A stretch of 64,000 bases of DNA from Agaribacillus aureus (GTDB lineage Bacteria > Bacteroidota > Bacteroidia > Cytophagales > Cyclobacteriaceae). Numbering within the stretch: position 1 is the stretch's first letter; each line of letters begins with the position of its first letter. The stretch spans positions 620,001 to 684,000 of the forward strand of contig JAUJEB010000003.1 in NCBI GenBank assembly GCA_030442055.1. Direction: 5' to 3'. A model generated the notes under the pieces. The model was not told where the DNA came from. It did no database searches and worked only from the letters and a program-made list of their open reading frames with translations. Shown here piece by piece: positions 23,730 to 55,917 of this stretch. The position numbers and the translations under genes are program-made.

Positions 23730-23803
23730 ATTTCATACATTAAAATTGATATTAAGTATTTTAACTAGTTGATTTCAGTATTTCGTCATCGTGGTAGTCC
23801 TTA

Positions 23804-38643: not shown

Positions 38644-39321
38644 CTATTGATTAAGCTTTTGGCTTGTGAGTTTCGCCCCTATATAATATTGCTCTATACT
38701 CATGGGAGTATCCGCCTTTCCGTCAAAAGCCAGGTGGCAGCAATATTTTTCATGCGGCAAAGCTATTTCACGCATTTGCCATGTCCGGTTATTAATTTCA
38801 GCCTGTCCGGAACCATCAAAGCGTATTTTCTTTAGTGGCAGGCTCAAGCCCATGCCATCGGCTTTGATGATCGCTTCTTTCCGGGTCCACCACCGATAGA
38901 ATTCGCGGTCATTGTCTTTGGCATTACGGATGATAGCTAATTCCCGCTCCGTGAATTGCCTGGTAAAGTATTCAAGCTTGATAGGGTTAATCTCTTCGAT
39001 ATCCACCCCAATATCGCCATTTTGGGTAATGACACATACAACAGCCTTACCTGAGTGAGATATGTTAAAGTCTATTTCTCCAGTCAGAAACGGCCGGTTG
39101 TACTTGGTGTACTGAATTTCATTTAATATTCCCCGGCTGATCCCATACTTTTTCAACCCTTCGATCAACAATAGTTTTCCAAACAAGCTGCAATGGGCAT
39201 CCTGCCATCTGCGAAATTTTCCTATTCTTTCCCGTAAGGCCTGCGGGACGCTGTCAAGGTGGTTGCCAAAGTCCGCCCGGTCTAATTGTTGGTCAAAAAA
39301 TGTGAACAGCATATTTATCAT
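38644..39321 (-). CDS. Sfp-type 4'-phosphopantetheinyl transferase
   Basis: This 225-residue enzyme moves phosphopantetheine from CoA to the serine of carrier proteins, making the NRPS T domains active. Motifs are FNISHSGKAVVCVI, the metal-binding GDIGVDIEEI and WWTRKEAIIKADGMGL. The length fits Sfp-type rather than AcpS-type transferases. It is 82 bp downstream of the interrupted NRPS gene on the same strand. All carrier domains of the cluster (43603 PCP and three NRPS T domains) are likely substrates. Confidence 0.92.
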   Translation of the reverse strand: MINMLFTFFDQQLDRADFGNHLDSVPQALRERIGKFRRWQDAHCSLFGKLLLIEGLKKYGISRGILNEIQYTKYNRPFLTGEIDFNISHSGKAVVCVITQNGDIGVDIEEINPIKLEYFTRQFTERELAIIRNAKDNDREFYRWWTRKEAIIKADGMGLSLPLKKIRFDGSGQAEINNRTWQMREIALPHEKYCCHLAFDGKADTPMSIEQYYIGAKLTSQKLNQ

Positions 39322-39403: not shown

Positions 39404-42400
39404 TTACTGCTGTTCCCTATAAGCATCCATCATAGCTGTAATGGTCGATTCGACGTGGGCTGCCAGTTCACTTATGGTAGGTTTTTCAAAAATACAATTG
39501 ACCGGAAGTGCCAGCTTCAGCGTCTCTTCGATGCGCGCGATAATTCGAATAGCGCCTAACGAGTTTCCACCCAGATCAAGGAAGTTGTCATTTACACCCA
39601 CCTGGCTGATTTGCAACACTTCCGCCCAGATTCCGGCAAGTATCTCCTCTATTTCGGTTTCAGGGGCCACATAGGGCACCTCTACTGTTGGCTGCTCTAT
39701 GTTTAAATCCGGCAGGGCCTTACGGTCAATTTTACCATTGGCAGATAAGGGTAAATTTTCCAGTTGTTTGAAATATGTGGGTATCATATAAGGCGGCACG
39801 TGCCTGGATAAATGTGCCTTCAGCGCTGATTGGGTTATACCGGAAGAAGCCTTATAAAAAGCTACAAGATGCTTTTTATCCCGGGTGTGGTTTTCGGCTG
39901 TTTCGGTGTAGCCGATTTCGCGCATAATTCTGTGCACCTCCTGCGAATCTATCTCCTCATTGATCTCGTCCAGGGCCCCTTCCCTGGTCTTGTGCCCCAG
40001 GCGAACATCCCAGCTGTAAGGAAAGGCATAATTGCTGTACCCCTGTTCTTTTTTATGCACATAAATACCTACCTGATTAATCAGGCAATTTGTGGAGCGT
40101 CCTGTATCTGATGGCCGTATCCACGGCAAATGTTGCTGCAGATAATTCATCATTACATCCATGCTTACATTTGTGTAGCGATAGAAGTCAATAAACTGCA
40201 CTTTCTCAAACACCTCATCCCCGGCAAAAACGGACGTATCCAATAATTTATTTACAGCATCATCTACCCGGTGGTATGCTTTTCTCACATTCAGGATGAT
40301 GTCGTCAATCCTCTGAATATCTATATCTTTTTTCCAGAATAACTCCTCGGTTAGCCTCGTTTCAAAAAACTGACCTCGTGAAAGTCCGGTTACGATAAAA
40401 GGTATTCCTTTCTCCAGCGCTACTTTTGTACTTAAGGTATACAGGGTTTTAAAGCATCCGTTGCAGACGTTGCTATGCCTTTTCAGGCTATCCACAAAGA
40501 TGGCGTTCATGGCGGGGGTAGTCCCGTACATATGATCCACGCCGAGATGTGCAGCTACCCGCTCAATATTGGCCTTAGCCTCTTCCGAGATGTAGCCATT
40601 ATCCAGGGTGTAGGCAAGCACCTTTGCGCCCATATCCACTAATTGTGCCAGGGCATAGGTGCTGTCTTTGCCGCCACTCAACAGCATCATGCAGTCATAA
40701 TTTTTCTTCTCCTGTTCTTTGGTTTCCGTGAATAGGTTACCTAGATCTTCTGTGGTTTTAAAATATTTTTTTGCCTTTTCCTGGTAACTATCAAAAGAGA
40801 GGCATAGTTCGCAGGTACCTGTCTCATCAAATGCCACATTAGGATAATTGGACGGCAGCCCACAGCGAACACAATGACTAATTTCACCTGATTCAATAGC
40901 ACCAGGATGGGTCTGCAATGCTACCACACAATCCTGAATATCGGGATGCGCGTTCAACGCCGATTCAATTTCACCTGGTTCAACGCGGATACCCCCAATT
41001 TTTACCTGATGATCTATTCTCCCTAAAAATTCCAATTCGCCATCTTTATTCATACGGGCCATATCGCCGGTGCGATACATTAGTGACCCGGCCTCAAACT
41101 TGTGATCGATAAATCGATCCTCCGTAAGTTTTTTGTCCTCCCAGTATCCATTTGCCAATCCTTTTCCGCTTAAATATAATTCACCCGGTACTCCCTGCGG
41201 AACCTGATTTTGACCGGCATCCAATACCAGGGCCTGCATATTGGGAATGGGTTTGCCAATGGGCACCGAGGTTTGCACATCGCGGCTCACATCGAGTTCG
41301 TGAACCACGCAACCAACGGTGGCTTCGGTGGGTCCATATTCATTGAATACCCGTATGGTTGAACCAAAAGCCCCGGCAATTGCCTTTGCCAGCTCCAACT
41401 TCAGGTCCTCACCGCCGACGATCACGGTTTTTAATGACGAAGTTGCCAGATCTTTATCCCGCAGTAACGCCAGGTGTGCCGGAGTCAGTTTAATGGTGTT
41501 GATTGTTTTGTCTTCAATAACATTTAGCAGTGATAAATCCGGACCTGCATCTGAGTCTCTGAATACTACCAGGTGTCCTCTGGAAATCAAGGGCACAAAA
41601 ACAGAAGTAATCGTCAGATCAAAACCGACGGAGGTAAACAATGGAAATACCGGCAACTCCTCATTCACATACTTTGTTTTGGCCCATTGTACGTAATGCG
41701 CCAGCGCACCATGAGAGATCATTACACCCTTGGGGTTTCCCGTAGAGCCGGAAGTATACATGATGTAAGCCAAATCGCGAGGTGCCGGGGCAACATCGGG
41801 TTTATCTGCATTTTCCGAAAAGATTTCTTCTTTATCGAGGTCCAGCGATAACAACGATACCTTGGAGTTACCCAGGTTTTTGGCCAACGCACTATTGGTC
41901 AATATCATGGTTGGGTTCGCCGATTCAAGTATTTGCTGCACGCGATGATCCGGGTTATCTGCGGCTATCGGAATAAAAGTGCCACCAGCCTTCAATATTC
42001 CCAGCACACTGATCAAAAATTCAGGTGTCCTGGGCAGGTAAATGATCAGTCTTTTTCCAGGTGAAATTCCTCTTTTGCCAAGATATTGCGCAAGCTGATT
42101 TGATTTTTCATCCAAATCGCGATAACTCAAAGATGTACCCTGATAGCACACCGCAATGGCATCGGGACTTTCAATGGCCTGTTTTCGAAATAACTCAACG
42201 ACCGTTGTCTGATCATGGTCTGTCGTTTTTCCGGCATCCAGGGTGGCCATTAATTGATGCTGTTCCTCCTGATCCGGTAAGCCAATTCGGACTATCGGTT
42301 GAAAGCGGTCTTCTATAAAAGCATCCAGAATTTTTAAAAAATGCTTAGGCACTTTTTCAAGCAGCGATCTATCAAATACCTCATGATTCAGATCAAAATG

Positions 42401-43591
42401 AAGCTGGATGCTCCCATCAGTGGTAAAATCATACACCTGCAACCTCATATGATGACGTGGGTCGACATGACCGGGATGTAACCATTCGGCATTAACAGGA
42501 ATGTCACCAAAGTCACCGAAGGTAGCGTGGATATAGTTCAGTATCACATTAAAGCCCTGACCCAGCGCCGGGGTTGCGGTACCGGCCCTTGCATTCATCA
42601 TAAATTCATTGACTTCCGTACGAACGCGCTCTAGCAGCGTGCTAAAGGTATCTTCCTGCCATACTTCAGCCACCAACGGTAAAACCTCAATAAAAACACC
42701 TGGTGTCTCCTTAAAATCAGTGGTGGTCCTGTTGTGCGTAGGCGTCCCGATGGCTAGTTTCGTTTGGGTGCTTACCCGGTGCAGGTACGCAAATAGAACG
42801 GATGCAAAAATGTTAAATAAGGAAAGGTGCTGCGTCCAGGAACGCAAATCTTTTTCCTTTGTCAGCTGTCGCAAACGATCTGAGCGATCTTTCCCAAGGT
42901 CGATAGAAACCCGGGTAGCTCCGGTGGTGGACGGAGAACCGGTATAACCGTATAATCCCGGAGGCGGAGGAAGTTTGGTTGTTACTTCCTGCCAATAGGT
43001 ATCGGACTTTTCATTTTGATCAACAAACCTGCTTTCATGCTCGTAAGCCACGTAATTTTGGAAGCCAGGCAAAGGTGAAATCTCTTCCAGGGTATCTGAT
43101 GACAGACCCTGATATAGCTCCGCCATTTTTTGATACAGCACCGACACGCCCCAGGCATCGGTAATAAGGTGATGTTGGTTAAGGTACCACATCCAGTGAT
43201 GTTCCGATTTTTTGACGAGCACCGTATCAAACAACCGGTGCGACAGATCAAACTTTACCCGGTTCCGGTTGGCAAGCCATGATGCTTCGTTTTCCAAAGC
43301 TGCCGCATTTGCCGACCAGTCCAATATCTCGAGTTGATAGTCAAGCTCCGGCAGTACCTTTTGTTGCGGGATTCCTCCTTCTTCTACAAAGACCGTTCTC
43401 AATGCATCGCTTTGTCGCATCAAATGCTGAAACGCCTGTTGGAAACGCTGGGCATCGACCGGCCCCGGCAGGTCAAAGGTCAAAACCATGTTATACAGTG
43501 GCGCATCGGGACTCAATTTTTGTCCTGTCCAAAGCAGCAACTGACTTTGCGTTAAGTTGGAAGTATTTAAAGAAGTATCAATTTGGCTCAT
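39404..43591 (-). CDS. NRPS C-A-T with a PP-loop amidotransferase-like domain inserted in an Asn-type A domain
   Basis: The 1395-residue protein has a condensation domain (active site HHLITDAWG, residues 140-148), an adenylation domain (TSGSTGNPKG from 613, GPTEA at 753, YRTGD at 839) and a carrier domain (LGGNSLGAI, Ser near 1344). The A domain is interrupted after its A8 motif. Residues about 899-1238 form a zinc ribbon (Cys907, 910, 927, 930) plus a PP-loop ATP-pyrophosphatase fold (LSGGKDST, residues 971-978) with NVCNGC at 1041-1046. This resembles WbpG-type N-acetyl-sugar amidotransferases. The A domain then resumes (LVAFYKA) and ends LPLSANGKIDRKAL. Specificity residues read D, L, T, K, I, G, E, V, G, K, close to the known Asn code. 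The insert may turn a carboxyl or amide into an amide, amidine or nitrile; this is inference. Confidence 0.9.
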   Translation of the reverse strand: MSQIDTSLNTSNLTQSQLLLWTGQKLSPDAPLYNMVLTFDLPGPVDAQRFQQAFQHLMRQSDALRTVFVEEGGIPQQKVLPELDYQLEILDWSANAAALENEASWLANRNRVKFDLSHRLFDTVLVKKSEHHWMWYLNQHHLITDAWGVSVLYQKMAELYQGLSSDTLEEISPLPGFQNYVAYEHESRFVDQNEKSDTYWQEVTTKLPPPPGLYGYTGSPSTTGATRVSIDLGKDRSDRLRQLTKEKDLRSWTQHLSLFNIFASVLFAYLHRVSTQTKLAIGTPTHNRTTTDFKETPGVFIEVLPLVAEVWQEDTFSTLLERVRTEVNEFMMNARAGTATPALGQGFNVILNYIHATFGDFGDIPVNAEWLHPGHVDPRHHMRLQVYDFTTDGSIQLHFDLNHEVFDRSLLEKVPKHFLKILDAFIEDRFQPIVRIGLPDQEEQHQLMATLDAGKTTDHDQTTVVELFRKQAIESPDAIAVCYQGTSLSYRDLDEKSNQLAQYLGKRGISPGKRLIIYLPRTPEFLISVLGILKAGGTFIPIAADNPDHRVQQILESANPTMILTNSALAKNLGNSKVSLLSLDLDKEEIFSENADKPDVAPAPRDLAYIMYTSGSTGNPKGVMISHGALAHYVQWAKTKYVNEELPVFPLFTSVGFDLTITSVFVPLISRGHLVVFRDSDAGPDLSLLNVIEDKTINTIKLTPAHLALLRDKDLATSSLKTVIVGGEDLKLELAKAIAGAFGSTIRVFNEYGPTEATVGCVVHELDVSRDVQTSVPIGKPIPNMQALVLDAGQNQVPQGVPGELYLSGKGLANGYWEDKKLTEDRFIDHKFEAGSLMYRTGDMARMNKDGELEFLGRIDHQVKIGGIRVEPGEIESALNAHPDIQDCVVALQTHPGAIESGEISHCVRCGLPSNYPNVAFDETGTCELCLSFDSYQEKAKKYFKTTEDLGNLFTETKEQEKKNYDCMMLLSGGKDSTYALAQLVDMGAKVLAYTLDNGYISEEAKANIERVAAHLGVDHMYGTTPAMNAIFVDSLKRHSNVCNGCFKTLYTLSTKVALEKGIPFIVTGLSRGQFFETRLTEELFWKKDIDIQRIDDIILNVRKAYHRVDDAVNKLLDTSVFAGDEVFEKVQFIDFYRYTNVSMDVMMNYLQQHLPWIRPSDTGRSTNCLINQVGIYVHKKEQGYSNYAFPYSWDVRLGHKTREGALDEINEEIDSQEVHRIMREIGYTETAENHTRDKKHLVAFYKASSGITQSALKAHLSRHVPPYMIPTYFKQLENLPLSANGKIDRKALPDLNIEQPTVEVPYVAPETEIEEILAGIWAEVLQISQVGVNDNFLDLGGNSLGAIRIIARIEETLKLALPVNCIFEKPTISELAAHVESTITAMMDAYREQQ

Positions 43592-43602
43592 TCACTGTTT
43601 GT

Positions 43603-43845
43603 TTATGCTGATTTGCGCCCTTTCAGGTAATTATCAATATCTTCAACCGTCATAAAATTTTCGATGACCAGATCTTCCGGGGGAATAGTAATCTCAAAAT
43701 GATCCTCAATAAACCTGACAAATCGCATCATGCCCATGGAATCTATTAATCCGCTACCCATCAGATCGTCTTCCGCCGCTACCTTTATCCCCGACCTGCC
43801 GCTAAGTAATTGTTCTTCAATATAATCTATTAAAACCTGACGCAT
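43603..43845 (-). CDS. Free-standing peptidyl carrier protein
   Basis: This 80-residue acyl/peptidyl carrier protein carries the phosphopantetheine site GLIDSMGMMRFV (Ser36). It sits 11 bp upstream of the interrupted NRPS gene and 5 bp downstream of the free adenylation gene. This trio of free A enzyme, carrier and flavin dehydrogenase is the set that loads proline and oxidises it to pyrrole-2-carboxyl while bound to the carrier (as in the PltF/PltL/PltE and Red systems). Confidence 0.9.
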   Translation of the reverse strand: MRQVLIDYIEEQLLSGRSGIKVAAEDDLMGSGLIDSMGMMRFVRFIEDHFEITIPPEDLVIENFMTVEDIDNYLKGRKSA

Positions 43846-43850
43846 AATTA

Positions 43851-45428
43851 TTATTTGTTTTCTTTAATCTTTGCTCCTTCTTCCTGTAGTTTTACCCGGT
43901 CTATTTTTCCCGTTGATGTATGGGGAAGTGATGACACAAAATTGATTTTATGAGGCATGGCATATAGTGGCAAATGAAGTCCGACGAAACTTTGTAAAGC
44001 CTTTTCAGACAAAGTGCATTGGTCTTTGAGTATTACTGTAGCCTCGATCAGCAAACCTTCCACATCATTGGAAACACTGAAGACAGCGGCCTCCGTTACG
44101 CCCTCATGCCTGAGTAACGCCGCTTCGACTTCATCTAGTTCCACACGATACCCTCTTGTTTTGATCTGCCGGTCTTTCCGGCCTAAAAACATCAATTCTC
44201 CTTTTGGGTTAAGTTGAACCAGGTCACCTGTACGGTAAAATACCTTTTCGAATCCCCATTCATCCCTGGAAACATATAATGATTTTTCCGTAAGCTGTGG
44301 CTGTTTCCAATAGCCTTTCATCATGGTAGCAGACCTGACGAGCAGCTCTCCCTGCTCACCCTCCGGCACCATAGCATCGGTTTTATCGACAATCATTATT
44401 TCCGTATTGTCCCAAACCTGGCCAATCGGAATAGCAGTATTGATGTCGGGTGGTGTGGTCATGTGATAATAAGTGCACTGATTGACCTCCGCGGGACCAT
44501 AAACATTGCTAAATATTGCCTGTGGCCAAAGTTCCATCAGCGCCTTCAGGTGCCGGCTCGAAAAAGGTTCACCGCCAAACAAAACCCATTTAATCGCACG
44601 CAGATCACGTTGGTCCAAAAGTCCCTGATCAAGTAACTGTACCAGGGCCAGCGGCACGGAGTACCAAACCGTTAATTTCTCTTTTTCCATCAGCTGTGCC
44701 AGGCTGGCGGGCATTTTTGTATGAGCCTCGGGAATGATGACAGTCGTTGCTCCAACCAGCGGACCTGAAAAATAACCCATTGTGGATATATCGAAGTGTA
44801 ATGCTGCGTGATTACCAATCCGGTCCTCCGGGCTTAGGTGATATAGTTGTGCGGATAATCTCGCATAACTCAGACCGCTGTAGTGGGTATGCATGATTCC
44901 TTTCGGAGCTCCTGTTGAACCAGAAGTGTACATTACATAAGCCAGGTCTTGTTCCAGTATCCGCAGGGCCGGTCCATTTCCGGCAGGAAATTGTTCCAGC
45001 ACCTCCCAGGGCAATGTTTTGATCACCTGCTCTTCACTGATACCAATGATGGTTTTCAGCTTTACATCTTCTTTTAAAATATCGTCTAAACCTCTTAACT
45101 GGGACCTGTGTGAGATTAAATGTTCGATGCTACAATCTTCCAGCAAAAAACGGGTACGGGCTGCCGGAGCATCGGGATCCAACGGGACATAGGCAGCGCC
45201 GGCTTTCATAATACCATAAACAGCAACGGCGGTCTCCAAACTCCGGCGAAGATAAATTCCTACCCGGTCGCCTTTCCGGACTCCCAAACTAACCAGCAAA
45301 TGTGCCAGTTGATTGGTTTTCGCAGATAACTCACGATAAGATATATGATTATTACCACAACGGAATGCGTCTTTGTCCGGAAAATTTCCGGCGGCTTGAT
45401 CAATCGAATGTGGTAATAGATAATTCAT
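43851..45428 (-). CDS. Stand-alone adenylation enzyme, probable L-proline activator
   Basis: This 525-residue A enzyme has A3 YTSGSTGAPKG, A5 NVYGPAEVNQCTYY, A7 FYRTGDL, A8 GRKDRQIKTRGYRVELDEVE and A10 HTSTGKIDRVKL, with no fused C or T domain. By the Gramicidin-synthetase alignment done by eye, the pocket residues are D, I, M, Y, L, G, V, Q, C, K. This is close to the Tyr/Leu/Val/Cys pattern of prolyl-AMP ligases of pyrrole pathways. The neighbours (carrier protein, acyl-CoA-dehydrogenase-like enzyme) support L-proline as substrate. The carrier gene starts 5 bp after its stop. Confidence 0.85.
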   Translation of the reverse strand: MNYLLPHSIDQAAGNFPDKDAFRCGNNHISYRELSAKTNQLAHLLVSLGVRKGDRVGIYLRRSLETAVAVYGIMKAGAAYVPLDPDAPAARTRFLLEDCSIEHLISHRSQLRGLDDILKEDVKLKTIIGISEEQVIKTLPWEVLEQFPAGNGPALRILEQDLAYVMYTSGSTGAPKGIMHTHYSGLSYARLSAQLYHLSPEDRIGNHAALHFDISTMGYFSGPLVGATTVIIPEAHTKMPASLAQLMEKEKLTVWYSVPLALVQLLDQGLLDQRDLRAIKWVLFGGEPFSSRHLKALMELWPQAIFSNVYGPAEVNQCTYYHMTTPPDINTAIPIGQVWDNTEIMIVDKTDAMVPEGEQGELLVRSATMMKGYWKQPQLTEKSLYVSRDEWGFEKVFYRTGDLVQLNPKGELMFLGRKDRQIKTRGYRVELDEVEAALLRHEGVTEAAVFSVSNDVEGLLIEATVILKDQCTLSEKALQSFVGLHLPLYAMPHKINFVSSLPHTSTGKIDRVKLQEEGAKIKENK

Positions 45429-45459: not shown

Positions 45460-46611
45460 CTACAAACCGAGCCATTTGGCAATGATATTGCGCTGAATAT
45501 CAGATGTACCTGCATAAAGCACACCGCCTACAGCATCTCTTAAATTTCGTTCTACCTCAAAATCGGTCATGTAGCCACTGCCACCATAGTTGCGAATAGC
45601 ATCCAGGCTTGAGGCGATGAAAGACTCGCTTAAGTGCAGTTTCAGGAGCGCTGCTTCCAGTGTGGCAGGTTTGTTGTTTTTCTTGAGCCATGCTACTTTG
45701 TACAGTAATAGCCTGGATGTCTCCAAACGTAATTTCATATCGGCTATTCTGTTGGAAACAGACTGAAATTGGCCAATGGGTTGTCCAAACTGTTGGCGTT
45801 CCTGCACATACTTAATCGTTTGCTCAAGCTGACGCTCCATGGCACCAAGTTGACTTGCCAGAATGCAACACCGGTCATATTCCAAAGAGTGGTTTAATAT
45901 ACTAAAACCGGCGCCCTCTTTGCCAAGCCGGTTTTCTTCCGGCACGAAGCAATTTTCAAATTTCAATTCTCCAAATGGAACGGTGCGCATACCCATTTTA
46001 TCTCGTACCGGACTGGCCTTAAAAGATTCTTCACCTTTCTCAACTAGAAAAGCCGATACCCCCCATCTACCTAACTTGGGATTGACATTGGCAAAAACCA
46101 ACACCACATCTGCTATTGGTGCCAGGGTAATCAGGCGCTTTTCGCCATTAAGTACATAGCCGCCGTCGCATTTTTCAGCTGTCATTTTCATGCTTAAAAT
46201 ATCCGATCCGGCGTCGGGTTCGGTCAATGCATGTGCGCCTATTTGTTGTCCGCTGGTAAATGCGTTGAGGTATTTCTCTTTTTGTGCCTCCGTTCCAAAT
46301 TGCGCAATCGGAACCTGAACAGTCCACATCTGGGCATTTAAGGCCAGGGCAAGGCCATTATCGCGACAGCCATAGCCAAACCCTTCCATGGCCAGCATCC
46401 CGGAAAGAATATCTATTTCCTCCCGTTGCCCGCCATATTGCGCCGGAGCGGCCAGTCCCTGGATCCCAAATTGAGCGCACTTCTGCCATAGTTCGCGGGA
46501 GAAACTCCCCTGTTTATCACGATCAACCAGATCGTCATTTAAGGTTTCTTGGGCGAACCGAACAACGCTGTCGCGATATTTTATTTGTTCTTCTGACCAG
46601 GAAAAATCCAT
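45460..46611 (-). CDS. Acyl-CoA-dehydrogenase-family flavoenzyme, probable prolyl-carrier dehydrogenase
   Basis: This 383-residue enzyme has the complete acyl-CoA dehydrogenase fold. It has AHALTEPDAGSDI in the middle beta domain, KMGMRTVPFGELKFENCFVP, YVQERQQFGQPIGQFQSVSN, RNYGGSGYMTDFEVERNLRD and YAGTSDIQRNIIAKWLGL at the C-terminus. In pyrrole pathways such an enzyme (PltE/RedW type) oxidises carrier-bound proline to pyrrole-2-carboxyl using FAD. It is first in the operon, 31 bp before the A enzyme. A simple fatty-acid role is less likely because no CoA-related genes are near. Confidence 0.85.
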   Translation of the reverse strand: MDFSWSEEQIKYRDSVVRFAQETLNDDLVDRDKQGSFSRELWQKCAQFGIQGLAAPAQYGGQREEIDILSGMLAMEGFGYGCRDNGLALALNAQMWTVQVPIAQFGTEAQKEKYLNAFTSGQQIGAHALTEPDAGSDILSMKMTAEKCDGGYVLNGEKRLITLAPIADVVLVFANVNPKLGRWGVSAFLVEKGEESFKASPVRDKMGMRTVPFGELKFENCFVPEENRLGKEGAGFSILNHSLEYDRCCILASQLGAMERQLEQTIKYVQERQQFGQPIGQFQSVSNRIADMKLRLETSRLLLYKVAWLKKNNKPATLEAALLKLHLSESFIASSLDAIRNYGGSGYMTDFEVERNLRDAVGGVLYAGTSDIQRNIIAKWLGL

Positions 46612-46701: not shown

Positions 46702-48915
46702 TTAGAATTCAAATTTCACTTTTCCTTTCAAAAAAAATGGGACACCTGGTGTAAAGTGAATTTCTTCGACACTTGTCGCTTCAGAAGCTAGCCGGGACTC
46801 CGTGGCAAATTGCGTCTCGTTCCATTCCTGATCAAAAAGGTTTTCGACAGCCAGCCCGAAGGTGAATGATTTCCATTCGTAGTTAACATTCACATCTGTA
46901 ATAAAATAGCCTTCGGCAACAATGCTGTTGTCTTCATTGGCAGGTCTGTCTTTTAAGTATCGCATCTGCAGGCCACCGGAAAAATTTTCTTTTTGGACAC
47001 TAAACCCACCCATAACTGTCAGGTCCGGTGCAAGCGGAATATATCGCTGTCCCTCCGGTTCATCCACGCTTCTGGCATAGGTATAATTAATATCTCCATT
47101 AAAAAACAACCAATCCAAAAGCTGGTACTGTAACCCAAAATCCACGCCAAGACGCCTGGTTTTTCCACTGGGCTCCACGATCCCTTCGTCTCCTACATAG
47201 ACAAACTCCTGCTCCAGCGATAAGTACCACAATGCAGAATTTATAATCAAATCGGGTACCGGCTTCCAGATAACTCCCAAATCACTGCCATAAGACGCAG
47301 GAAGCACCGACCTGGCCCCATCGATCACTACACGGGCATCGTTGGAATGGAATCCAACACCTGATTTTAGAAAAAACTGCACATTTTCATCATAGTTGTA
47401 GATAAAATTAAGTTTGGGGCTCACAGCGGACTTCGAAAGCTGGCGCTCATTATCGTCGGTAGACAGAAGACCATTTCGATAATTAAAATCAAAATAGTCA
47501 AACCGGATACCAGGGTTGATCAACAGCGATCCCAAATCAAATTCAAAATTGAGATAGGAAAATAAATTGGTTTCATCTATATCTCCGAACTGGAGGCGTT
47601 CAATAGTAGTCTGGCGATCCCGCATTCGCGAAAGTTCCACATCGTCGTTGTTATCATACCGCACTCCCACTCCGACCTGCATCAGGACTTCGGTGTTGTT
47701 AATATCGAAATGATGATTCAATTCACTTTCTGCACCGAATAATTGGCGATCCTCACTTTGCATGATCCTGTCACCATTTACAGGATCATTCAGGAAAAAG
47801 GTAAAATTGGAGAATAACCTAAAATCATAAGCAGAATAATAGAGCTTATTCTTAAGAAAAGTACCGTCGTTAAAACTTTTCATATACTTCAGCATCACAT
47901 TGGTGCGATGTGTTTCGCCGCCTTCGGTATCATCAATGGCACCAAAGCGCGAAATAAGTCCCGCATCCACCGCTCGCTGAGGAATTTGTCCGGAGGCATC
48001 CCAATCACTGGAAAAATGAGAAACCATTAACGAAAACCGGTCCAGGTTATGAAAATTGGCGGTATACTTTCCCATCACGTTGATCCTACTAAAATCCTGG
48101 GGCGACTCAAAAGCACCGTCGGAGCTCAGATACTCGGCAGCTACGTAAGCGTCATGATGATCAGAATCTGCCAGTTTAAACAATCCAACCGAACGGAATG
48201 TATTGAAACGTCCGGCTTCCACGCTCACGGAACTTTTTTCTAACCGGTCTTTAGTTTTAAAATTGACATAGCCGGCGGTGCCAAAATTACCTTTGTCTGC
48301 ATAATAAGCTCCTTTTCCAAAATCAATTTTATCAACTGTCTCCGGAATCAAAAAATGAAGATCGGAATACCCCTGTCCATGCGCATGCGAAACCATATTG
48401 ACCGGTAAGCCATCCACGTCGATACGTATATCCGTGCCGTGGTCAATATCAAAACCTCGCAGAAATATTTGCTCCGCCTTGCCTCCTCCGGCATGTTGCC
48501 CGATGAACAGCCCCGGCACTTTTCTTAAAATTTCCTGGGAGGAATTAACCGGGAACAATTCGGTGTTAATATCCGAAATAAGATTAACAGCCTTCACATT
48601 TTGGGTCACCATTATTTCATCCAGCCGGAAGGAAGCTTCGGAAAGTACTATTTCGAGGTAATTGGATAAATCGTCGACAACTACTTCCATACTCTTGTAT
48701 CCCAAATGTCTCACCAGCAAAGTGTCGCCGGATTTTACCTTCATAGAAAACTTACCGAGTTCGTTGGTATGTTCATGTCTCCCCGAAAGATTATGAATAA
48801 TGTAAGCTCCTTCAATGGGTACGTTTTTCGCATCAGTTACTGATCCTTTTATGGTTTGTCCATAAATAACGGATGGTGCAATAACAAAAATAAAAATGGT
48901 AAATATAGATTTCAT
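46702..48915 (-). CDS. TonB-dependent outer-membrane receptor
   Basis: This 737-residue receptor is shorter than the SusC proteins and has no SusD partner. It has a signal peptide, a carboxypeptidase-like domain (GSVTDAKNVPIEGAYIIH), a plug (RKVPGLFIGQHAGGGKAEQI, IFLRGFDIDHGTDIRIDVDG) and a barrel ending in Phe. A histidine-rich loop (MVSHAHGQGYSDLHF) lies in the plug. Receptors of this size take up metal complexes or small chelates. It is between the two arms of the NRPS cluster and close to a HupE gene, so it may import the metal-loaded product or another metal complex. Confidence 0.85.
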   Translation of the reverse strand: MKSIFTIFIFVIAPSVIYGQTIKGSVTDAKNVPIEGAYIIHNLSGRHEHTNELGKFSMKVKSGDTLLVRHLGYKSMEVVVDDLSNYLEIVLSEASFRLDEIMVTQNVKAVNLISDINTELFPVNSSQEILRKVPGLFIGQHAGGGKAEQIFLRGFDIDHGTDIRIDVDGLPVNMVSHAHGQGYSDLHFLIPETVDKIDFGKGAYYADKGNFGTAGYVNFKTKDRLEKSSVSVEAGRFNTFRSVGLFKLADSDHHDAYVAAEYLSSDGAFESPQDFSRINVMGKYTANFHNLDRFSLMVSHFSSDWDASGQIPQRAVDAGLISRFGAIDDTEGGETHRTNVMLKYMKSFNDGTFLKNKLYYSAYDFRLFSNFTFFLNDPVNGDRIMQSEDRQLFGAESELNHHFDINNTEVLMQVGVGVRYDNNDDVELSRMRDRQTTIERLQFGDIDETNLFSYLNFEFDLGSLLINPGIRFDYFDFNYRNGLLSTDDNERQLSKSAVSPKLNFIYNYDENVQFFLKSGVGFHSNDARVVIDGARSVLPASYGSDLGVIWKPVPDLIINSALWYLSLEQEFVYVGDEGIVEPSGKTRRLGVDFGLQYQLLDWLFFNGDINYTYARSVDEPEGQRYIPLAPDLTVMGGFSVQKENFSGGLQMRYLKDRPANEDNSIVAEGYFITDVNVNYEWKSFTFGLAVENLFDQEWNETQFATESRLASEATSVEEIHFTPGVPFFLKGKVKFEF

Positions 48916-49498: not shown

Positions 49499-50584
49499 TC
49501 ACAAGTCTTTTCGCTCGACCATGCTTATGGCATTTATAAAATGATATGGGCTTTTGGCATCTTCAGGCATAAATTCTATTTCTATCTCCTGCCCTAAGCC
49601 CAGCGAGGATGCGTACTCCAAAAACAATTCCATCACTACCTGATCTTCCAATGCCCATCCGGTAGAGTCAAATACGGTGCATTGATTTTGTACATGAGCA
49701 TAAGCCTCTTTATTTTGAGCTACCTCTACCAAATCGGGACCTATTTTACTGTGATCTAATTGCTGGCACTCCCCTTCAACAATGGCCTGTTCCCTAAAAT
49801 CCGGGCATACGAAACTGTTTTCTAAAAGATTTAAGGGCAATTCTACCTTGCCTGGAAAATCGGCACCAACGGCATTTATATGCAGCCAGGGTTTGGTACG
49901 AAGCCCTGAAAACAACGGGCCTTTGCCTACCTCAACGGAAGTGGCGGTACACAATATATCGGCCCTGGCCACAATCTCCTCGATGGAAGCCGGAACAATT
50001 TCAACATGCAGTTGCAGGGCTGCACAGCGATCCTCAAAGGAAGCTAAAGCGACGTCATCGACATCGTAAATCAGCACCCGGTCAAAGTCATACTTACAAG
50101 ACAACCCGTGGAGTTGTGTTACTGACTGCGCACCGCAGCCAATCAATCCAAGGGTAGTACTATCAGGATTTGCCAATAGCATGCTGGCAATAGCTGAGGC
50201 CGCTCCTGTTCTGAGCGCCGTAAGCAAGACGCCATCCATCAGTCCCAACAGGTGTCCTGTAGCCGTATCGTAAGCCGACAAAGTTGACAGGATAGTTGGT
50301 AAATTATACTTTTCAGGATTGTTGGGATGATACCCTACAACCTTAATGATTACTTTCTCCCCTTTCCCGTGTAAAGGCATCCATTCGATCAATCCCGATT
50401 CCGGATTCTGGTAATTAAACCCGGAGCGTTTGGGTATGATGGTATTCAAAGGGTCAAATTTTCTAAAAGCTTTCCACATTCTTGAAATAAGCGCCTCCAT
50501 AACTGCGTCAATACCATGATGTTGCACAATTTTTTGCACATCCTGGCCAGATAAAATTATCGTTTTGTTTTGACTGAATCTCAT
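49499..50584 (-). CDS. Ornithine cyclodeaminase / mu-crystallin family protein
   Basis: This 361-residue NAD-binding protein shows the family signatures: LLTALRTGAASAIASMLLAN before the Rossmann fold, LGLIGCGAQSVTQLHGLS (GxGxxG) and a DFREQA/STGWALEDQVV C-terminal block. Two roles fit an NRPS cluster: conversion of ornithine to proline, which would feed the pyrrole branch, or an SbnB-like dehydrogenase step that makes 2,3-diaminopropionate. No SbnA-type partner is in the window, which favours proline supply. It is divergent from the HupE gene, with 248 bp between. Confidence 0.8.
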   Translation of the reverse strand: MRFSQNKTIILSGQDVQKIVQHHGIDAVMEALISRMWKAFRKFDPLNTIIPKRSGFNYQNPESGLIEWMPLHGKGEKVIIKVVGYHPNNPEKYNLPTILSTLSAYDTATGHLLGLMDGVLLTALRTGAASAIASMLLANPDSTTLGLIGCGAQSVTQLHGLSCKYDFDRVLIYDVDDVALASFEDRCAALQLHVEIVPASIEEIVARADILCTATSVEVGKGPLFSGLRTKPWLHINAVGADFPGKVELPLNLLENSFVCPDFREQAIVEGECQQLDHSKIGPDLVEVAQNKEAYAHVQNQCTVFDSTGWALEDQVVMELFLEYASSLGLGQEIEIEFMPEDAKSPYHFINAISMVERKDL

Positions 50585-50832: not shown

Positions 50833-52083
50833 ATGAGGATACATTTACGATTCATCTATGTTGTCATTATAGGTTTAATTATTATCGCCGCTCCCCGACC
50901 CGTGCAGGCGCATGCCCCCAATCAGAGCTACATTTTCTTCTACATTTATGAAGACGGTATTGACGGGATAATAGAGATTACCACTGACGACATCAACCGG
51001 GCCCTAAACCTTTCGTTGCCCCGCGAAATAGCTTTGGAAGATTTGAATGCATACCTGCCTCAGATAAAGGCATATGCGCTTGAAAATATTTCCTTTAAGT
51101 CGGTACAAGGCAGCCATACCATTCAATTCAACGAAACTACCCTGTTTAATGGCGGCAGTCTGGGCAATTACGTCCAGCTTCATTTCAGCCTGGAAAGTCT
51201 CTCGGAAGTGCCGGAAAAATTAGATATCAGGTACGAGGTTTTATTTGACAAAGATCCTTCCCACCAGGGTCTCATGGTAATCGCAGAACACTGGAAGGCG
51301 GGGATCGTTAATAACGAAGCTATGGTTTCGTTGATCCTGAGCACCGATGAGCGCCAAAAAACTTTGGAAATAGCGGAGGGATCCTTATGGCAAGGATTTA
51401 CTATGATGGTGGGCCAGGGAATACACCACATTTGGATTGGCCTTGACCATATACTATTTTTACTGGCCCTGATACTACCTTCCGTGTTGACAAGACTTTT
51501 TTCAGAGAAGAAGTCTTCCGGGACAACCTCTGGCAAATTAGGATTTTTATCCAGCATCAGCAATAGCTGGAAACCGGTTGAAAGCTTCAAGCCGGCCTTC
51601 ATTTATATCGTTAAAATTGTAACTTTCTTTACCATTGCGCACACCATTACATTGAGCCTGGCCGCATTGGAAATTGTCAGCCTGCCTTCACGCATTGTCG
51701 AATCCATTATCGCCTTGTCAATCGCACTGGCCGCTTTACATAACATTTATCCCCTTTTCAAAGGGAAAGATTGGCTCATCGCTTTTGGTTTCGGGCTTTT
51801 TCACGGTTTTGGTTTTGCCAGCGTTCTCGGAGACATCGGCCTGGGTGGGCAATTTTTAACGTTGACCTTATTCGGGTTTAATGTCGGCGTGGAGATAGGA
51901 CAGGTCGTCATTATCTGCCTTATTTTTCCGGTACTTTATCTGATGCGCAATCTGAAGTTCTATCCTCAGTTCCTGTTTTCGGGTTCCATTTTACTTATTT
52001 TAATATCACTCTATTGGTTTACAGAGCGGTTTTTCGAAGTAGATCTGCTGCTAGGCAAATTTGTTTTTGGCTTTATAGTTTAG
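50833..52083 (+). CDS. HupE/UreJ-family membrane protein
   Basis: The 416-residue protein has a signal peptide (cleavage near VQAHA), a soluble N-terminal domain of about 170 residues and seven or so membrane helices. The His-rich motif GIHHIWIGLDHILFLLALIL and the later FGFGLFHGFGFASVLGDIGL identify the HupE/UreJ_2 family, whose members are linked to nickel or cobalt handling. It is the first gene of the rightward arm, 82 bp before the NRPS gene. Together with the TonB receptor it hints at a metal-related role of the cluster. Direct evidence for the metal is lacking. Confidence 0.85.
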   Translation: MRIHLRFIYVVIIGLIIIAAPRPVQAHAPNQSYIFFYIYEDGIDGIIEITTDDINRALNLSLPREIALEDLNAYLPQIKAYALENISFKSVQGSHTIQFNETTLFNGGSLGNYVQLHFSLESLSEVPEKLDIRYEVLFDKDPSHQGLMVIAEHWKAGIVNNEAMVSLILSTDERQKTLEIAEGSLWQGFTMMVGQGIHHIWIGLDHILFLLALILPSVLTRLFSEKKSSGTTSGKLGFLSSISNSWKPVESFKPAFIYIVKIVTFFTIAHTITLSLAALEIVSLPSRIVESIIALSIALAALHNIYPLFKGKDWLIAFGFGLFHGFGFASVLGDIGLGGQFLTLTLFGFNVGVEIGQVVIICLIFPVLYLMRNLKFYPQFLFSGSILLILISLYWFTERFFEVDLLLGKFVFGFIV

Positions 52084-52165: not shown

Positions 52166-55132
52166 ATGACATCCAAAAATAAGTCATCTCAAAACAAGGG
52201 TTCGCTACTTGAAAGGTGGTTGACACTCAACAAATCCCAGGAAACTCCCGGTGGCGTCGCTCCCCGTCCTGAGGGTACAATAAGTCCGCTTTCATCGGGC
52301 CAGCAAAAGCTATGGTTTTTACAGCAACTTTATCCTCAAAACCCATTTTACAACTATACGGAAATATATCGTTTCACCGGAAAACTAAATACTGAAATTT
52401 TGCTGAAGAGTTTCCGGCAGGTCATTGCCCGTCATGAAATCTTACGCACAACCATTGCGCTGAAGGATGGTGAAGCGGTTCAAATTGTTAACGACGATGT
52501 CGCTGTTGATGTCGTCAACCACGATTTCCGGCATATTGTTGTCGCGCAACACGAGCAAGAGATACAATCGCTGATATCCAAAGAATCAAGCCATTCATTT
52601 GATCTCACGAGGGGTCCTCTTACCAGGCTCAACATGGTAAAACTGTCGGAGGATAATCATTTGGTCATGATAACCATGCATCATATTATTACCGATGAAT
52701 GGTCTTTGGGAATTCTGCAAAAGGAATGGGCCATGATTTATCAAGCCTTGCAGTCGGGGAACAACCCAACACTGCAGACATTGACCATTCAATATGCAGA
52801 CTATGCCTATTGGCAAAAGAAACGCCCCGTTGATCCGAAGCATTTGGCCTATTGGAAGGAGAAGCTGCAAGGAAAATTACCTGTCTTAAATTTACCTTCA
52901 GACCGGCCCCGCCCTGCCATACCTTCCTTTGAGGGGGGATTTTGCACGCAGTCATTTCCCATAGCATTATCTGGGCGGATACAGGAGCTGGCCAAGGAAA
53001 CAAATACAACGATGTTTGTCTTTTTGTTAGCAGTTTACAAGGTCTTACTCTATCGCTATTCGGGCCAGGAAGACATACTGGTAGGAACTCCCTTCAACGG
53101 ACGGGACCAGGTTTCAATGGAAAAACTGATCGGTTATTTTATTGATACTTTGGTGCTTCGCTCCAAACTCAGTGGCAATACGAAGTTTACCGATTTGCTG
53201 GCTGCCGTTCGTCAGACATCCCTGGATGCGTTCTCTCATAAAGAGCTGCCTTTTGAAACGCTTGTTAAGGAATTGAAACCCGATCGTTATATGAGCGCAA
53301 ATCCATTGTTCCAGGTAATGTTCGTGTATCACAAGGTTCCTACTCTTCCTTCCTTTGGTCCCGACGTGACCTTTGAGCAAGTGCCATTTGAGGCTGTTTC
53401 AGCAAAATTTGATCTCACCTTGCATGTTTCGGAAAAAGACGGTGTGCTGACCGCTACCTTTGAATATGCAAAGGATCTTTTCGAACGCACCACTATTGAG
53501 CGAATACAGCGGCATTTGAAAGTATTGATCGAAGGTATCGCTGAAAACCCGGAAACTGCGATCGAAGACTTGCGGCTGCTGACCCAACCCGAGCAACATC
53601 AGCTGTTAGATGAGTGGAATGAAACCGGGGTTCCATTTGAGGATGGCCTTCTGATCCATCAATTATTTGAACGTCAGGCCATAGATAATCCTAATGCACC
53701 GGCTGTAGCTTTTCAAGGAAAGCAGCTTACCTATCAACAGCTAAATGAGCAGTCCAATGCCATAGCTGCCTATCTGCATGAAAAAGGGGTTGGCAAAGGC
53801 AGCCTGGTTGGATTATTTGCCGAACGCTCTACCGAGTTTCCGGTGGGTATTTTAGGAATTTTAAAGGCCGGAGGTGCTTACTTGCCGCTGGACCCCGACT
53901 ACCCCGCAGAGCGGATATCCCTGATGATCGCAGATGCCGGGATCGATGTTATTTTGACGCATGATCGATTAACCGCAAACTTTTCAAATACAACCTTATC
54001 GTTACTCACCTTTGAAGAGGCCGAAACAAGGCCTTCGACAGTGCCCCAAGGTCTACCCAACGACCTATCTGCAGACAACCTGGCATATGTTATCTATACT
54101 TCCGGAAGTACTGGGCAACCAAAGGGCGTGCCGGTTACCCATGGTAATTTACTGCGCTCGACACAAGCTCGTTTTGAATATTACCCCACCACCCCTGAGT
54201 CCTTTCTGTTGTTGTCATCATTTTCTTTTGACAGTTCGGTCGCGGGGATTTTCTGGACGCTTAGCAGTGGCGGACTTCTGGTAGTATCCGACAAGCGTAT
54301 AGAACAGGATATCAGCCAGTTAGCAAACCTGATACAGGACCATCGGATAACCCATACGCTGCTTTTGCCTTCGCTCTATAATTTGTTACTACAATACGCC
54401 CCGGAAAAGAGTCTTACCTCCCTGCGCACCATTATTGTAGCGGGTGAGGCGTGCCCGCCTTCCCTGTGCAAACTTCACGCCCACACCATGGAGCACGCGA
54501 CGCTTTACAACGAATACGGCCCCACTGAGGCGACGGTCTGGTGTACAGTCCATAAAACCTCGGCAGAAGATAAGGAGGGGCCGGTCTCGATTGGGCGTCC
54601 TATTGCCAATGCGCGCATTTACATCCTGGATCAAAAATTGAGACCTGTGCCGGTGGGTGTCCCCGGCGAATTATATGTTGCAGGAGCCGGCCTGACCCAG
54701 GGGTATTTGGGAAAGCCGGAAATTTCAAATATCAAATTTCTGCCCAATCCGTTTAGTGCTGATCCCACAGATAAAATCTACAAAACCGGTGATCTGGCGC
54801 GGTATAGAGCCGATGGCCTTATCGAGTTTTTGGGGCGCGCTGATGATCAGGTAAAGATCCGTGGTTTTCGTATTGAGCTGGATGAAATTAAGGAAACCCT
54901 GAAAACATTAGATGGCATTCAGGATGCCGCTGTTCTGGTACACAAAGAACAAAAGTCTGCACCGATTGAAGATATAAATAGTGTGGATGTAAAGGAACTT
55001 GTGGACTACATGACAGTGTTAGATGCTGAGAAAGCTTCTGAACTGTTAAGGTCCGTGGAGATCCTTTCGGAAAACGAGCTGGATTACATGTTGGATGAGA
55101 TGAAGAAGTCAAATAAACAAAATGGGATATGA
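52166..55132 (+). CDS. NRPS C-A protein whose A domain stops after motif A8
   Basis: The 988-residue protein has a condensation domain (HHIITDEWS, residues 172-180) and an adenylation domain with A3 YTSGSTGQPKG (645), A5 NEYGPTEATVWC, A7 YKTGDLARY (872) and A8 GRADDQVKIRGFRIELDEI (890). After AAVLVHKEQ (929) the A-domain C-terminal half is missing and a helical tail (LLRSVEILSENELDYMLDEM) ends the protein. The missing A10 part and carrier domain are encoded by the gene at 55914. Pocket residues read by eye are D, S, A, L, I, A, E, V, W; the amino acid was not assigned. The stop TGA overlaps the next ATG (ATGA at 55129-55132). Confidence 0.9.
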   Translation: MTSKNKSSQNKGSLLERWLTLNKSQETPGGVAPRPEGTISPLSSGQQKLWFLQQLYPQNPFYNYTEIYRFTGKLNTEILLKSFRQVIARHEILRTTIALKDGEAVQIVNDDVAVDVVNHDFRHIVVAQHEQEIQSLISKESSHSFDLTRGPLTRLNMVKLSEDNHLVMITMHHIITDEWSLGILQKEWAMIYQALQSGNNPTLQTLTIQYADYAYWQKKRPVDPKHLAYWKEKLQGKLPVLNLPSDRPRPAIPSFEGGFCTQSFPIALSGRIQELAKETNTTMFVFLLAVYKVLLYRYSGQEDILVGTPFNGRDQVSMEKLIGYFIDTLVLRSKLSGNTKFTDLLAAVRQTSLDAFSHKELPFETLVKELKPDRYMSANPLFQVMFVYHKVPTLPSFGPDVTFEQVPFEAVSAKFDLTLHVSEKDGVLTATFEYAKDLFERTTIERIQRHLKVLIEGIAENPETAIEDLRLLTQPEQHQLLDEWNETGVPFEDGLLIHQLFERQAIDNPNAPAVAFQGKQLTYQQLNEQSNAIAAYLHEKGVGKGSLVGLFAERSTEFPVGILGILKAGGAYLPLDPDYPAERISLMIADAGIDVILTHDRLTANFSNTTLSLLTFEEAETRPSTVPQGLPNDLSADNLAYVIYTSGSTGQPKGVPVTHGNLLRSTQARFEYYPTTPESFLLLSSFSFDSSVAGIFWTLSSGGLLVVSDKRIEQDISQLANLIQDHRITHTLLLPSLYNLLLQYAPEKSLTSLRTIIVAGEACPPSLCKLHAHTMEHATLYNEYGPTEATVWCTVHKTSAEDKEGPVSIGRPIANARIYILDQKLRPVPVGVPGELYVAGAGLTQGYLGKPEISNIKFLPNPFSADPTDKIYKTGDLARYRADGLIEFLGRADDQVKIRGFRIELDEIKETLKTLDGIQDAAVLVHKEQKSAPIEDINSVDVKELVDYMTVLDAEKASELLRSVEILSENELDYMLDEMKKSNKQNGI

Positions 55133-55917
55133 CCCGAAGAATTAAAAGATCAGAAAAATTTGAAATCTCTTTGGTGATCAAGGATGATCAGTTTATCCGT
55201 CCACCGAGAGACGCCCAGCGCAATGCGTTGCTAAACAGAGCGGTTAAGGAATTCGCGGAGGATCTTGCTGCATTGAATCAGCAAGCTGCCGAATTTGTCG
55301 AAGGAGCTGTCCAGGATACCTTTGGAGACCGAACCCAGGCTTTGCTTTCGGACCAGGAAATTATGGAGGACTGGCAGCTGCCGATTATGCAGGCAATGGC
55401 CGATATTGTCACTGAAAGCCAGGGAGATGTATTGGAAATTGGCTTTGGCAGAGGCATTTCCTCCGATATGATCCAGGCTCGTGCCATAAATTCACATACG
55501 ATTATCGAATGTAATGACGCCATCGTAGACCGTTTCCATCAGTGGAAAGAAAATTATCAAGGCAAAGATATCAGACTTAAGCACGGCATGTGGCAGGATG
55601 TTATTCATGATTTAGGGAGGTTTGACAGTATTTTTTTTCACACCTATCCTTTAAATGAGGATGAATACATGAATTATGTGAATGGCAGCGTTACCTTTGC
55701 CGAGCACTTTTTCCAAACGGCTGTAAAACACCTGCAACCCAACGGGGTGTTTACCTATTTCTCCAACGAAATAGACTCCCTGAGCAGGGAGCACCAACGC
55801 TTGCTCTTAAAACATTTTTCATCTTTTTCTGTTAAAACCGTCGAACTACAGGTTCCGGATGATGTTAAGGACACGTGGTGGGCCAATTCAATGGTAATTG
55901 TTAAAGCCGTAAAATGA
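55129..55917 (+). CDS. GAMT-like SAM-dependent methyltransferase between two halves of an A domain
   Basis: This 262-residue class I methyltransferase matches guanidinoacetate N-methyltransferase (GAMT) in its core. It has MEDWQLPIMQAMA, the SAM-binding VLEIGFGRGISS (residues 101-112), IIECND (125-130), GMWQDVI and FFHTYPLNEDEY (169-180). In GAMT the last motif is normally YDTYP; the Asp, which contacts the guanidinium group, is His171 here, so the substrate probably differs. An N-terminal extension of about 75 residues precedes the core. The gene overlaps both neighbours by ATGA, so all three are translationally coupled. It likely methylates the amino acid tethered or activated by the split module. 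Confidence 0.88.
   Translation: MTRRIKRSEKFEISLVIKDDQFIRPPRDAQRNALLNRAVKEFAEDLAALNQQAAEFVEGAVQDTFGDRTQALLSDQEIMEDWQLPIMQAMADIVTESQGDVLEIGFGRGISSDMIQARAINSHTIIECNDAIVDRFHQWKENYQGKDIRLKHGMWQDVIHDLGRFDSIFFHTYPLNEDEYMNYVNGSVTFAEHFFQTAVKHLQPNGVFTYFSNEIDSLSREHQRLLLKHFSSFSVKTVELQVPDDVKDTWWANSMVIVKAVK

What the first reader, a model, noticed from the sequence alone, without database searches (positions are those of the whole stretch)
39404..43591. PP-loop, zinc-ribbon amidotransferase-like domain inserted in an Asn-type NRPS adenylation domain
Residues about 899-1238 interrupt the A domain between A8 and A9/A10 and contain a four-Cys zinc ribbon, SGGKDST and an NVCNGC motif, like WbpG-type enzymes that turn an acetamido into an acetamidino group. 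A-domain interruptions are usually methyltransferases; a PP-loop ATPase there is new to me. The pocket residues match the Asn code, so the insert may act on the Asn side chain (amidine or nitrile, as QueC-type PP-loop enzymes do) or make the amide from Asp.
Basis: partly seen in the sequence, partly recalled or inferred. Interest (0 to 1): 0.92.

Follow-up and report, generated by a model that had tools for sequence, protein, structure and literature searches.

The report
Asparagine-modifying domain inside peptide synthetase
A peptide-building enzyme carries an extra ATP-using domain that probably strips water from its asparagine building block to make a nitrile; such domains are already known from two antibiotic pathways, but here one sits in a widespread, unexplored and possibly metal-collecting pathway and shows three cysteines that suggest an iron-sulfur cluster.

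Summary
In detail: a 38.8 kDa zinc-ribbon/PP-loop domain (residues ~897-1236) interrupts an Asn-code adenylation domain between A8 and A9. It is not new in kind. Size, insertion site, Asn context and SGGKD motif match the AMDH (aminomutase/amide dehydratase) domain of cystobactamid CysH and the 342-residue extension of the albicidin module; CysH turns carrier-bound Asn into beta-cyanoalanine or isoasparagine. The CysH sequence could not be fetched, so this rests on matching anatomy. Best reading: ATP-dependent dehydration of Asn on the carrier; amidine formation or amidation of Asp is less likely. Two things go beyond what I found in print. (1) Three invariant cysteines (1043, 1046, 1169) align with the three of LarE, a PP-loop family with [4Fe-4S] members; 25 of 30 WbpG-like proteins and the solved sugar amidotransferase lack them. 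If CysH shares them, its dark brown colour is explained. (2) The 80 closest relatives all lie in ORFs homologous to this synthetase, mostly in one cluster with a prolyl/pipecolyl-type starter, a HupE/UreJ permease and, in Bacteroidota, a TonB receptor. Record titles span about nine phyla, product unknown to me: a metallophore candidate. Chemistry, cluster and metal are inferred, not shown.

The parts
39404..43591 (-). NRPS module C-A(insert)-PCP, 1395 aa
42251..43558 (-). Condensation domain (residues 12-447), HHLITDA active site
40922..42190 (-). Adenylation core (residues 468-890), code DLTKIGEVGK, Asn-type
39884..40903 (-). Inserted zinc-ribbon/PP-loop domain, AMDH-like (residues 897-1236, 38.8 kDa)
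40802..40873 (-). Zinc-ribbon pattern C907/C910...C927/C930
   Evidence: 99-100% conserved in 81 sequences
40658..40678 (-). PP-loop motif SGGKDST (972-978)
40454..40471 (-). NVCNGC (1041-1046), C1043 and C1046 of the cysteine triad
40085..40087 (-). C1169, third cysteine of the triad (GRSTNC)
39719..39874 (-). Remainder of the A subdomain with A9 and A10 (K1287)
39452..39640 (-). Peptidyl carrier domain (1318-1380), GGNSL
43603..43845 (-). Stand-alone carrier protein, 80 aa
   Evidence: a matching short ORF (E 1e-4 or better) in 69 of 80 loci
43851..45428 (-). Stand-alone A domain, code DIMYLGVQCK (relatives such as DPFYLALLCK): prolyl/pipecolyl-like starter, likeness recalled
45460..46611 (-). 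PigA/RedW-like acyl-CoA dehydrogenase (prolyl-carrier dehydrogenase type)
   Evidence: 427.6 bits to PigA, cut-off 500
46702..48915 (-). TonB-dependent receptor
49499..50584 (-). Ornithine/lysine cyclodeaminase-like enzyme (closest solved: lysine cyclodeaminase)
50833..52083 (+). HupE/UreJ_2 family membrane protein
52166..55132 (+). C-A(N-terminal part) of the second module, code DSALIAEVW
55129..55917 (+). Guanidinoacetate-methyltransferase-like enzyme lying between the two halves of the second A domain
55914..57896 (+). A(C-terminal part)-PCP-C of the second module
57909..60380 (+). C-PCP-thioesterase release module
38644..39321 (-). 4'-phosphopantetheinyl transferase

Best explanation
The insert is an AMDH-type (aminomutase/amide dehydratase) domain of the adenine-nucleotide alpha-hydrolase (PP-loop) fold. 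The A core loads L-Asn onto the neighbouring carrier. The PP-loop domain then uses ATP to activate the side-chain amide oxygen as an adenylate (inferred from the fold), and loss of AMP gives the nitrile, beta-cyanoalanine (shown for CysH, inferred here); isoasparagine is the known alternative outcome of the same domain. A [4Fe-4S] cluster held by C1043, C1046 and C1169, with one open iron, is predicted to sit by the PP-loop and help the chemistry. The modified residue follows a starter made by the stand-alone A domain, carrier, dehydrogenase and cyclodeaminase (dehydrogenated proline or pipecolate), and the peptide is probably a metal chelator, in Bacteroidota taken up through the TonB receptor. 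Shown here: anatomy, conservation, gene context, profile alignment of the triad. Inferred: reaction, cluster, product, metal.
For: Published AMDH: a 38 kDa domain inserted in the Asn-activating module CysH, SGGKD motif, Asn dehydrated to beta-cyanoalanine (+96 instead of +114) only when the domain is present, BLAST homologues all in Asn A domains, CysH dark brown (PMC7966384, passages). The albicidin module has a 342-aa extension of the alpha-ANH superfamily with SGGKD between A and T and prefers Asn (PMC8949500, passages). Here: 38.8 kDa for 897-1236, SGGKDST and the A8/A9 site, Asn-type code in 79 of 81. Triad: all three Cys in 81 of 81 aligned sequences and in 22 of 22 NRPS-type domains of a wider set, one of them a free-standing Streptomyces protein; of 30 WbpG-like proteins 5 have all three and 25 none. 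hhalign to an alignment of five LarE sequences (E 4.2e-8 global, 6.6e-8 local) and two MAFFT alignments place all three Cys on three LarE Cys. Foldseek: best 8wex, then TtuA, YcfA and LarE entries, some titled as [4Fe-4S]. TtuA's cluster is ligated by three Cys with one iron free (PMC6225789, passages). Context: of 58 loci with full flanks, HupE 50, CA2-like 50, TBDR 47, stand-alone A 42.
Against: No direct alignment to CysH could be made, nor a check that CysH has the same triad. Gross et al. saw no CxxCxxxC motif and left the cofactor open. hhalign profiles were shallow (Neff about 2.2-2.4) and I ran no negative control for the alignment. The 5 triad-bearing WbpG-like proteins are among the 8 fetched by similarity to the insert; 0 of the 22 fetched by the family model have it, so 5 of 30 is not a natural frequency. 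Foldseek TM-scores to Fe-S enzymes are low (about 0.27-0.39 of the query); only 8wex reaches 0.6, with rmsd 6.6. 8wex lacks the triad yet matches the fold best, so an amidotransferase reaction is not excluded. A cyanoalanine gives no obvious metal ligand. TBDR is missing from 11 and HupE from 8 of 58 full-flank loci, 4 lack both; by the locus rows no TBDR was seen in the cyanobacterial, acidobacterial, chloroflexal or actinobacterial loci, and no HupE in the two Anaerolineae loci.
Confidence: 0.8

Rival explanations
1. Amidine-forming amidotransferase: the domain adds ammonia to the activated Asn amide, as WbpG-type enzymes do on acetamido sugars.
For: TIGR03573 is the best family; 8wex is the best fold match.
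Against: Score below the family's cut-off (126.6 against 203.2); no ammonia-supplying glutaminase recognised among families shared by nine or more loci (rarer genes not examined); 8wex lacks the triad; the CysH domain, taken as homologous, gives a nitrile or isoasparagine.
Confidence: 0.06
2. Fe-S-dependent sulfur insertion: the domain makes a thioamide (thioasparagine), a soft-metal ligand suited to a copper-binding product, in the manner of LarE/TtuA.
For: Same three cysteines and fold class as [4Fe-4S] PP-loop sulfur-inserting enzymes; metal-uptake-like gene neighbours.
Against: No sulfur carrier or desulfurase recognised among families shared by nine or more loci; no sulfur product is reported for CysH in the passages read.
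Confidence: 0.1
3. Isoasparagine (aminomutase) rather than nitrile is the native outcome in this cluster. This is a variant within the AMDH reading, so its odds overlap with those of the best explanation.
For: CysH gives isoasparagine, favoured after beta-hydroxylation by CysJ.
Against: No CysJ-like dioxygenase recognised in the 25 of 41 window ORFs scanned against Pfam or in families shared by nine or more loci.
Confidence: 0.2
4. Asn synthetase-like domain that makes the amide from Asp before loading.
For: Asparagine synthetase and carbapenam synthetase appear among weaker fold matches.
Against: Asn-type pocket in 79 of 81; no glutaminase domain found in the protein.
Confidence: 0.02

Closest known systems
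AMDH domain of CysH (cystobactamid)
   Same: Asn A domain interrupted by a 38 kDa SGGKD domain (PMC7966384, passages)
   Different: Here the module has an N-terminal C domain and sits in a cluster with HupE, a TonB receptor and a prolyl/pipecolyl-type starter; CysH is a stand-alone module; direct sequence identity not measured
alpha-ANH-like extension of the albicidin [A-T] module
   Same: 342 aa, SGGKD, Asn preferred, cyanoalanine in the product (PMC8949500, passages)
   Different: Different pathway; sequence not fetched
TIGR03573 WbuX/WbpG N-acetyl sugar amidotransferases (8wex)
   Same: Zinc ribbon, PP-loop, overall fold
   Different: Below curated cut-off; 25 of 30 WbpG-like proteins and 8wex lack the cysteine triad
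[4Fe-4S] PP-loop enzymes LarE and TtuA
   Same: Three cysteines in register with LarE; PP-loop fold class
   Different: They insert sulfur; the insert scores only 26.4 bits to the LarE family (cut-off 150)
Methyltransferase-interrupted A domains (TioS, KtzH)
   Same: A8/A9 insertion site (PMC11355689, passages)
   Different: Different inserted fold and chemistry; the reviews seen in passages (PMC11355689; PMC8097286) name methyltransferase, oxidase, ketoreductase or monooxygenase inserts and hold no 'PP-loop'

Membership tests
AMDH domain | Inserted in an Asn-specific A domain | tested here: met
   (specificity by code only)
AMDH domain | About 38 kDa / 342 aa with SGGKD ATP motif | tested here: met
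   38.8 kDa, SGGKDST; reference values
AMDH domain | Sequence homology to CysH | not testable with these tools
   no CysH sequence was reached in the collections used
AMDH domain | Amide dehydratase / aminomutase activity | not testable with these tools
   needs protein mass spectrometry
WbuX/WbpG N-acetyl sugar amidotransferase (TIGR03573) | Score above the curated cut-off | tested here: not met
   126.6 against 203.2 bits
WbuX/WbpG N-acetyl sugar amidotransferase (TIGR03573) | Separate protein of a sugar pathway (definition recalled) | tested here: not met
   in an NRPS-homologous ORF in 80 of 80 kept relatives
[4Fe-4S] PP-loop enzymes | CxxC plus a distant third Cys in register with LarE | tested here: met
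[4Fe-4S] PP-loop enzymes | Bound cluster | not testable with these tools
   needs iron and sulfide analysis, EPR or Moessbauer
LarE (TIGR00268) | Score above the curated cut-off | tested here: not met
   26.4 against 150 bits
NRPS metallophore cluster | Metal-uptake genes beside the synthetase | tested here: inconclusive
   HupE 50, TBDR 47 of 58 full-flank loci; TBDR not seen in loci titled outside Bacteroidota and Balneolota; no known chelating group identified

The most novel reading that the evidence does not exclude
AMDH domains are iron-sulfur PP-loop enzymes: a three-cysteine [4Fe-4S] cluster like that of LarE and TtuA, inside an NRPS adenylation domain, drives amide-to-nitrile dehydration, perhaps through a transient thioamide. 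Their commonest use among the relatives examined is an undescribed, probably metal-binding peptide whose cluster occurs in records titled to about nine phyla.
Probability: 0.4. Interest if true: 0.75.

Novelty: new member of a known kind. Interest (0 to 1): 0.5.

Why it matters
The AMDH mechanism and its coloured cofactor were left open in 2021. The triad gives a concrete, cheap test: iron and sulfide content, UV-visible/EPR spectra, Cys-to-Ala changes. If right, it links Fe-S enzymes of the tRNA-thiolation type to nitrile formation on an assembly line. The conserved cluster points to a widespread small molecule, in marine Bacteroidota above all, whose metal and structure are unknown to me.

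Tried and rejected
Considered and rejected: methyltransferase insert (no such match); frame error (one ORF in the window, and homologous ORFs in 80 of 80 kept loci). Product guesses (picolinyl, pyrrole, Ni or Cu chelator) were not settled: the cyclodeaminase looks more like lysine (310 bits) than ornithine cyclodeaminase (129 bits), while the starter code looks proline-like from memory. My first hand reading of the starter code was off at one residue; one search corrected it. The TonB receptor has no close solved relative, and the copper-transporter paper PMC12914433 (outline and passages) gave no link to this cluster. The 'contiguous' and 'split' totals mix in the NRPS itself or the stand-alone A domain, so I used only ORFs over 900 aa from the rows. 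For one search, 38 loci (L092-L099, L109-L138) gave 34 candidate ORFs and 30 distinct proteins; the rest fell to my motif and similarity filter or were duplicates. A CysH alignment was wanted and not possible. Ten paper searches showed, in the listings and passages I saw, no report of this cluster's product; only two of the 14 papers listed hold the word AMDH, and the one with more than a mention leaves its cofactor open. The library lacks most subscription journals. The RSC Chem. Biol. 2020 survey of interrupted A domains is not held and is only recalled as covering methyltransferase inserts. The original albicidin paper (2015) was seen only through others.
Full report
What is there. The ORF at 39404-43591 (-) encodes C-A-PCP with the A domain interrupted between A8 and A9. 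The insert, residues about 897-1236, has mass 38.8 kDa. Alone it matches TIGR03573 (E 1.5e-36, 126.6 bits, cut-off 203.2) and more weakly argininosuccinate-synthase, LarE and QueC families. It folds well by itself (mean pLDDT 89.5). In the A-insert-PCP model (85.4; pTM 0.57, so relative placement of domains is uncertain) it follows the strand at model residues 424-433 and precedes the strand at 779-787. Best fold match is the Legionella N-acetyl sugar amidotransferase 8wex (E 6e-11, TM 0.60 of the query, rmsd 6.6), followed by TtuA, YcfA and LarE at TM about 0.27-0.39.

Conservation. A genome-contig scan found 167 relatives; the best 80 were kept and examined. All 80 lie in ORFs homologous to the window NRPS, two as fragments (L014, L057) and several cut by contig ends. 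The A-domain code is Asn-type in 79 of 81 sequences including the window; of the other two one shows no core position and one lacks only the final Lys. In the insert the four zinc-ribbon cysteines, the PP-loop, NVCNGC, TGLSRGQ, GRSTNC and SWDVR are nearly invariant. In 395 sampled Bacteroidota, 58 genomes have a match at E 0.001 or better, but only 2, own included, have one below 1e-100; the next best is 3.8e-20. In the phylum sample around the L072 genome 3 of 296, that genome included, have it at E 1e-30 or better.

What it is known as. Gross et al. 2021 (PMC7966384; abstract and passages read) describe AMDH: a 38 kDa domain inserted in the stand-alone Asn module CysH, with SGGKD, that dehydrates carrier-bound Asn to beta-cyanoalanine or converts it to isoasparagine. 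Deleting it abolishes both. They report BLAST homologues all in Asn A domains, none tied to a known metabolite. PMC8949500 (passages) describes the 342-aa alpha-ANH-like extension with SGGKD in the albicidin module. The present insert fits on size, place, substrate code and motif. I could not align it with CysH, so membership is strongly supported but not directly tested.

Cysteine triad. C1043, C1046 and C1169 are present in 81 of 81 aligned sequences, and in 22 of 22 NRPS-type domains of a wider set (the window, 16 of the 80 loci, four further inserts and one free-standing Streptomyces protein). Among 30 WbpG-like proteins from Bacteroidota, 5 have all three and 25 none of the three. The 5 come from the 8 proteins fetched by similarity to the insert; none of the 22 fetched by the family model has the triad, so the ratio is shaped by the sampling. 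8wex has no cysteine at these places in a sequence alignment. The 22 NRPS-type domains lie on one side of a branch with full support, but the branch is long (3.27) and the program warns of long-branch joins. Profile alignment to five Bacteroidota LarE sequences, one from the window's own genome, puts all three cysteines on three LarE cysteines in global and local modes (E 4.2e-8 and 6.6e-8), and two MAFFT alignments do so in 5 of 5 LarE rows; no negative control was run. LarE entries in the PDB are titled as [4Fe-4S] proteins, and TtuA holds its cluster by three cysteines with one free iron (PMC6225789, passages). I predict the same cluster here. It could account for the dark brown colour of CysH, for which the authors found no CxxCxxxC motif; whether CysH has this triad I could not check. 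A CxxC with a distant third Cys would not be caught by that pattern.

Mechanism. Shown elsewhere: Asn loading and loss of water on CysH. Inferred here: adenylation of the amide oxygen by the PP-loop, as in QueC-type nitrile formation (recalled), with the open iron as Lewis acid or as a sulfide carrier that gives a transient thioamide. Amidine, thioamide and isoasparagine remain possible and are scored as rivals.

Cluster. Conserved neighbours: a stand-alone A domain (code DIMYLGVQCK in the window, DPFYLALLCK-like in others), a carrier protein (short matching ORF in 69 of 80 loci), a PigA/RedW-like dehydrogenase, an ornithine/lysine cyclodeaminase, HupE/UreJ, a TonB receptor, and a second module with DSA(M/L/C)-type code. 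In 58 loci with full flanks, labels given by best BLAST hit: HupE 50, CA2-like 50, TBDR 47, stand-alone A 42, dehydrogenase 25, cyclodeaminase 24; 4 have neither HupE nor TBDR. Absence within 10 kb is not absence from the genome. Record titles span Bacteroidota, Balneolota, Cyanobacteriota, Acidobacteriota, Actinomycetota, Chloroflexota, Gemmatimonadota and Verrucomicrobiota (many are MAGs, so bins may err), and two Rhodobacterales plasmids carry the cluster with HupE. The make-up varies: in the rows no TBDR appears in the cyanobacterial, acidobacterial, actinobacterial, chloroflexal or verrucomicrobial loci, no HupE in the two Anaerolineae loci, and the Gemmatimonadota contig is too short to tell. 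In 40 of 80 loci a His-rich protein (median 7.7% His against 2.0% in 144 other ORFs of 100-220 aa) is shared. This suggests a metallophore; the metal is unknown.

Verdict. A real feature, correctly read from raw sequence, but a new member of a known kind. The interest left is the Fe-S prediction and the unexplored, widespread cluster.

Noticed in passing
52166-57896 (+): The second A domain is split over separate ORFs at the A8/A9 junction with a guanidinoacetate-methyltransferase-like gene between them, ORF ends overlapping. Of the 43 of 80 loci with a CA2-like ORF over 900 aa, 22 lack A10 in that ORF (split), 19 are contiguous and 2 are cut by the locus edge (my count from the rows); 17 of the 22 show the A-domain remainder in the next ORF and 9 have the methyltransferase.
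   Followed up: partly
L100:16062-20112: Streptomyces sp. NBC_01216 plasmid: the same PP-loop domain (38% identity, triad kept) is not inside an A domain but at the N-terminus of a separate protein with a condensation-like part, beside an A-T protein and asnB.
   Followed up: partly
L013:11513-11953 and 39 more loci: Family of about 155 aa, His-rich, with a hydrophobic N-terminal stretch in the six members printed; the one member scanned has no Pfam or NCBIfam match; mostly just downstream of the NRPS.
   Followed up: partly
L092-L094, L096, L097: WbpG-like proteins with the same three cysteines (CWHC...EC); perhaps Fe-S enzymes rather than plain sugar amidotransferases.
   Followed up: partly
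15608-17836 and 22137-24850 (-): C39-peptidase ABC transporter, VKOR/thioredoxin fusion and LanC-like protein: a possible exported modified-peptide locus.
   Followed up: no
L101 and L105: Plasmids of two Rhodobacterales genera share the cluster and its exopolysaccharide-gene flank with identical protein accessions for most listed genes; transposition genes lie beside the L101 copy, suggesting mobility.
   Followed up: no
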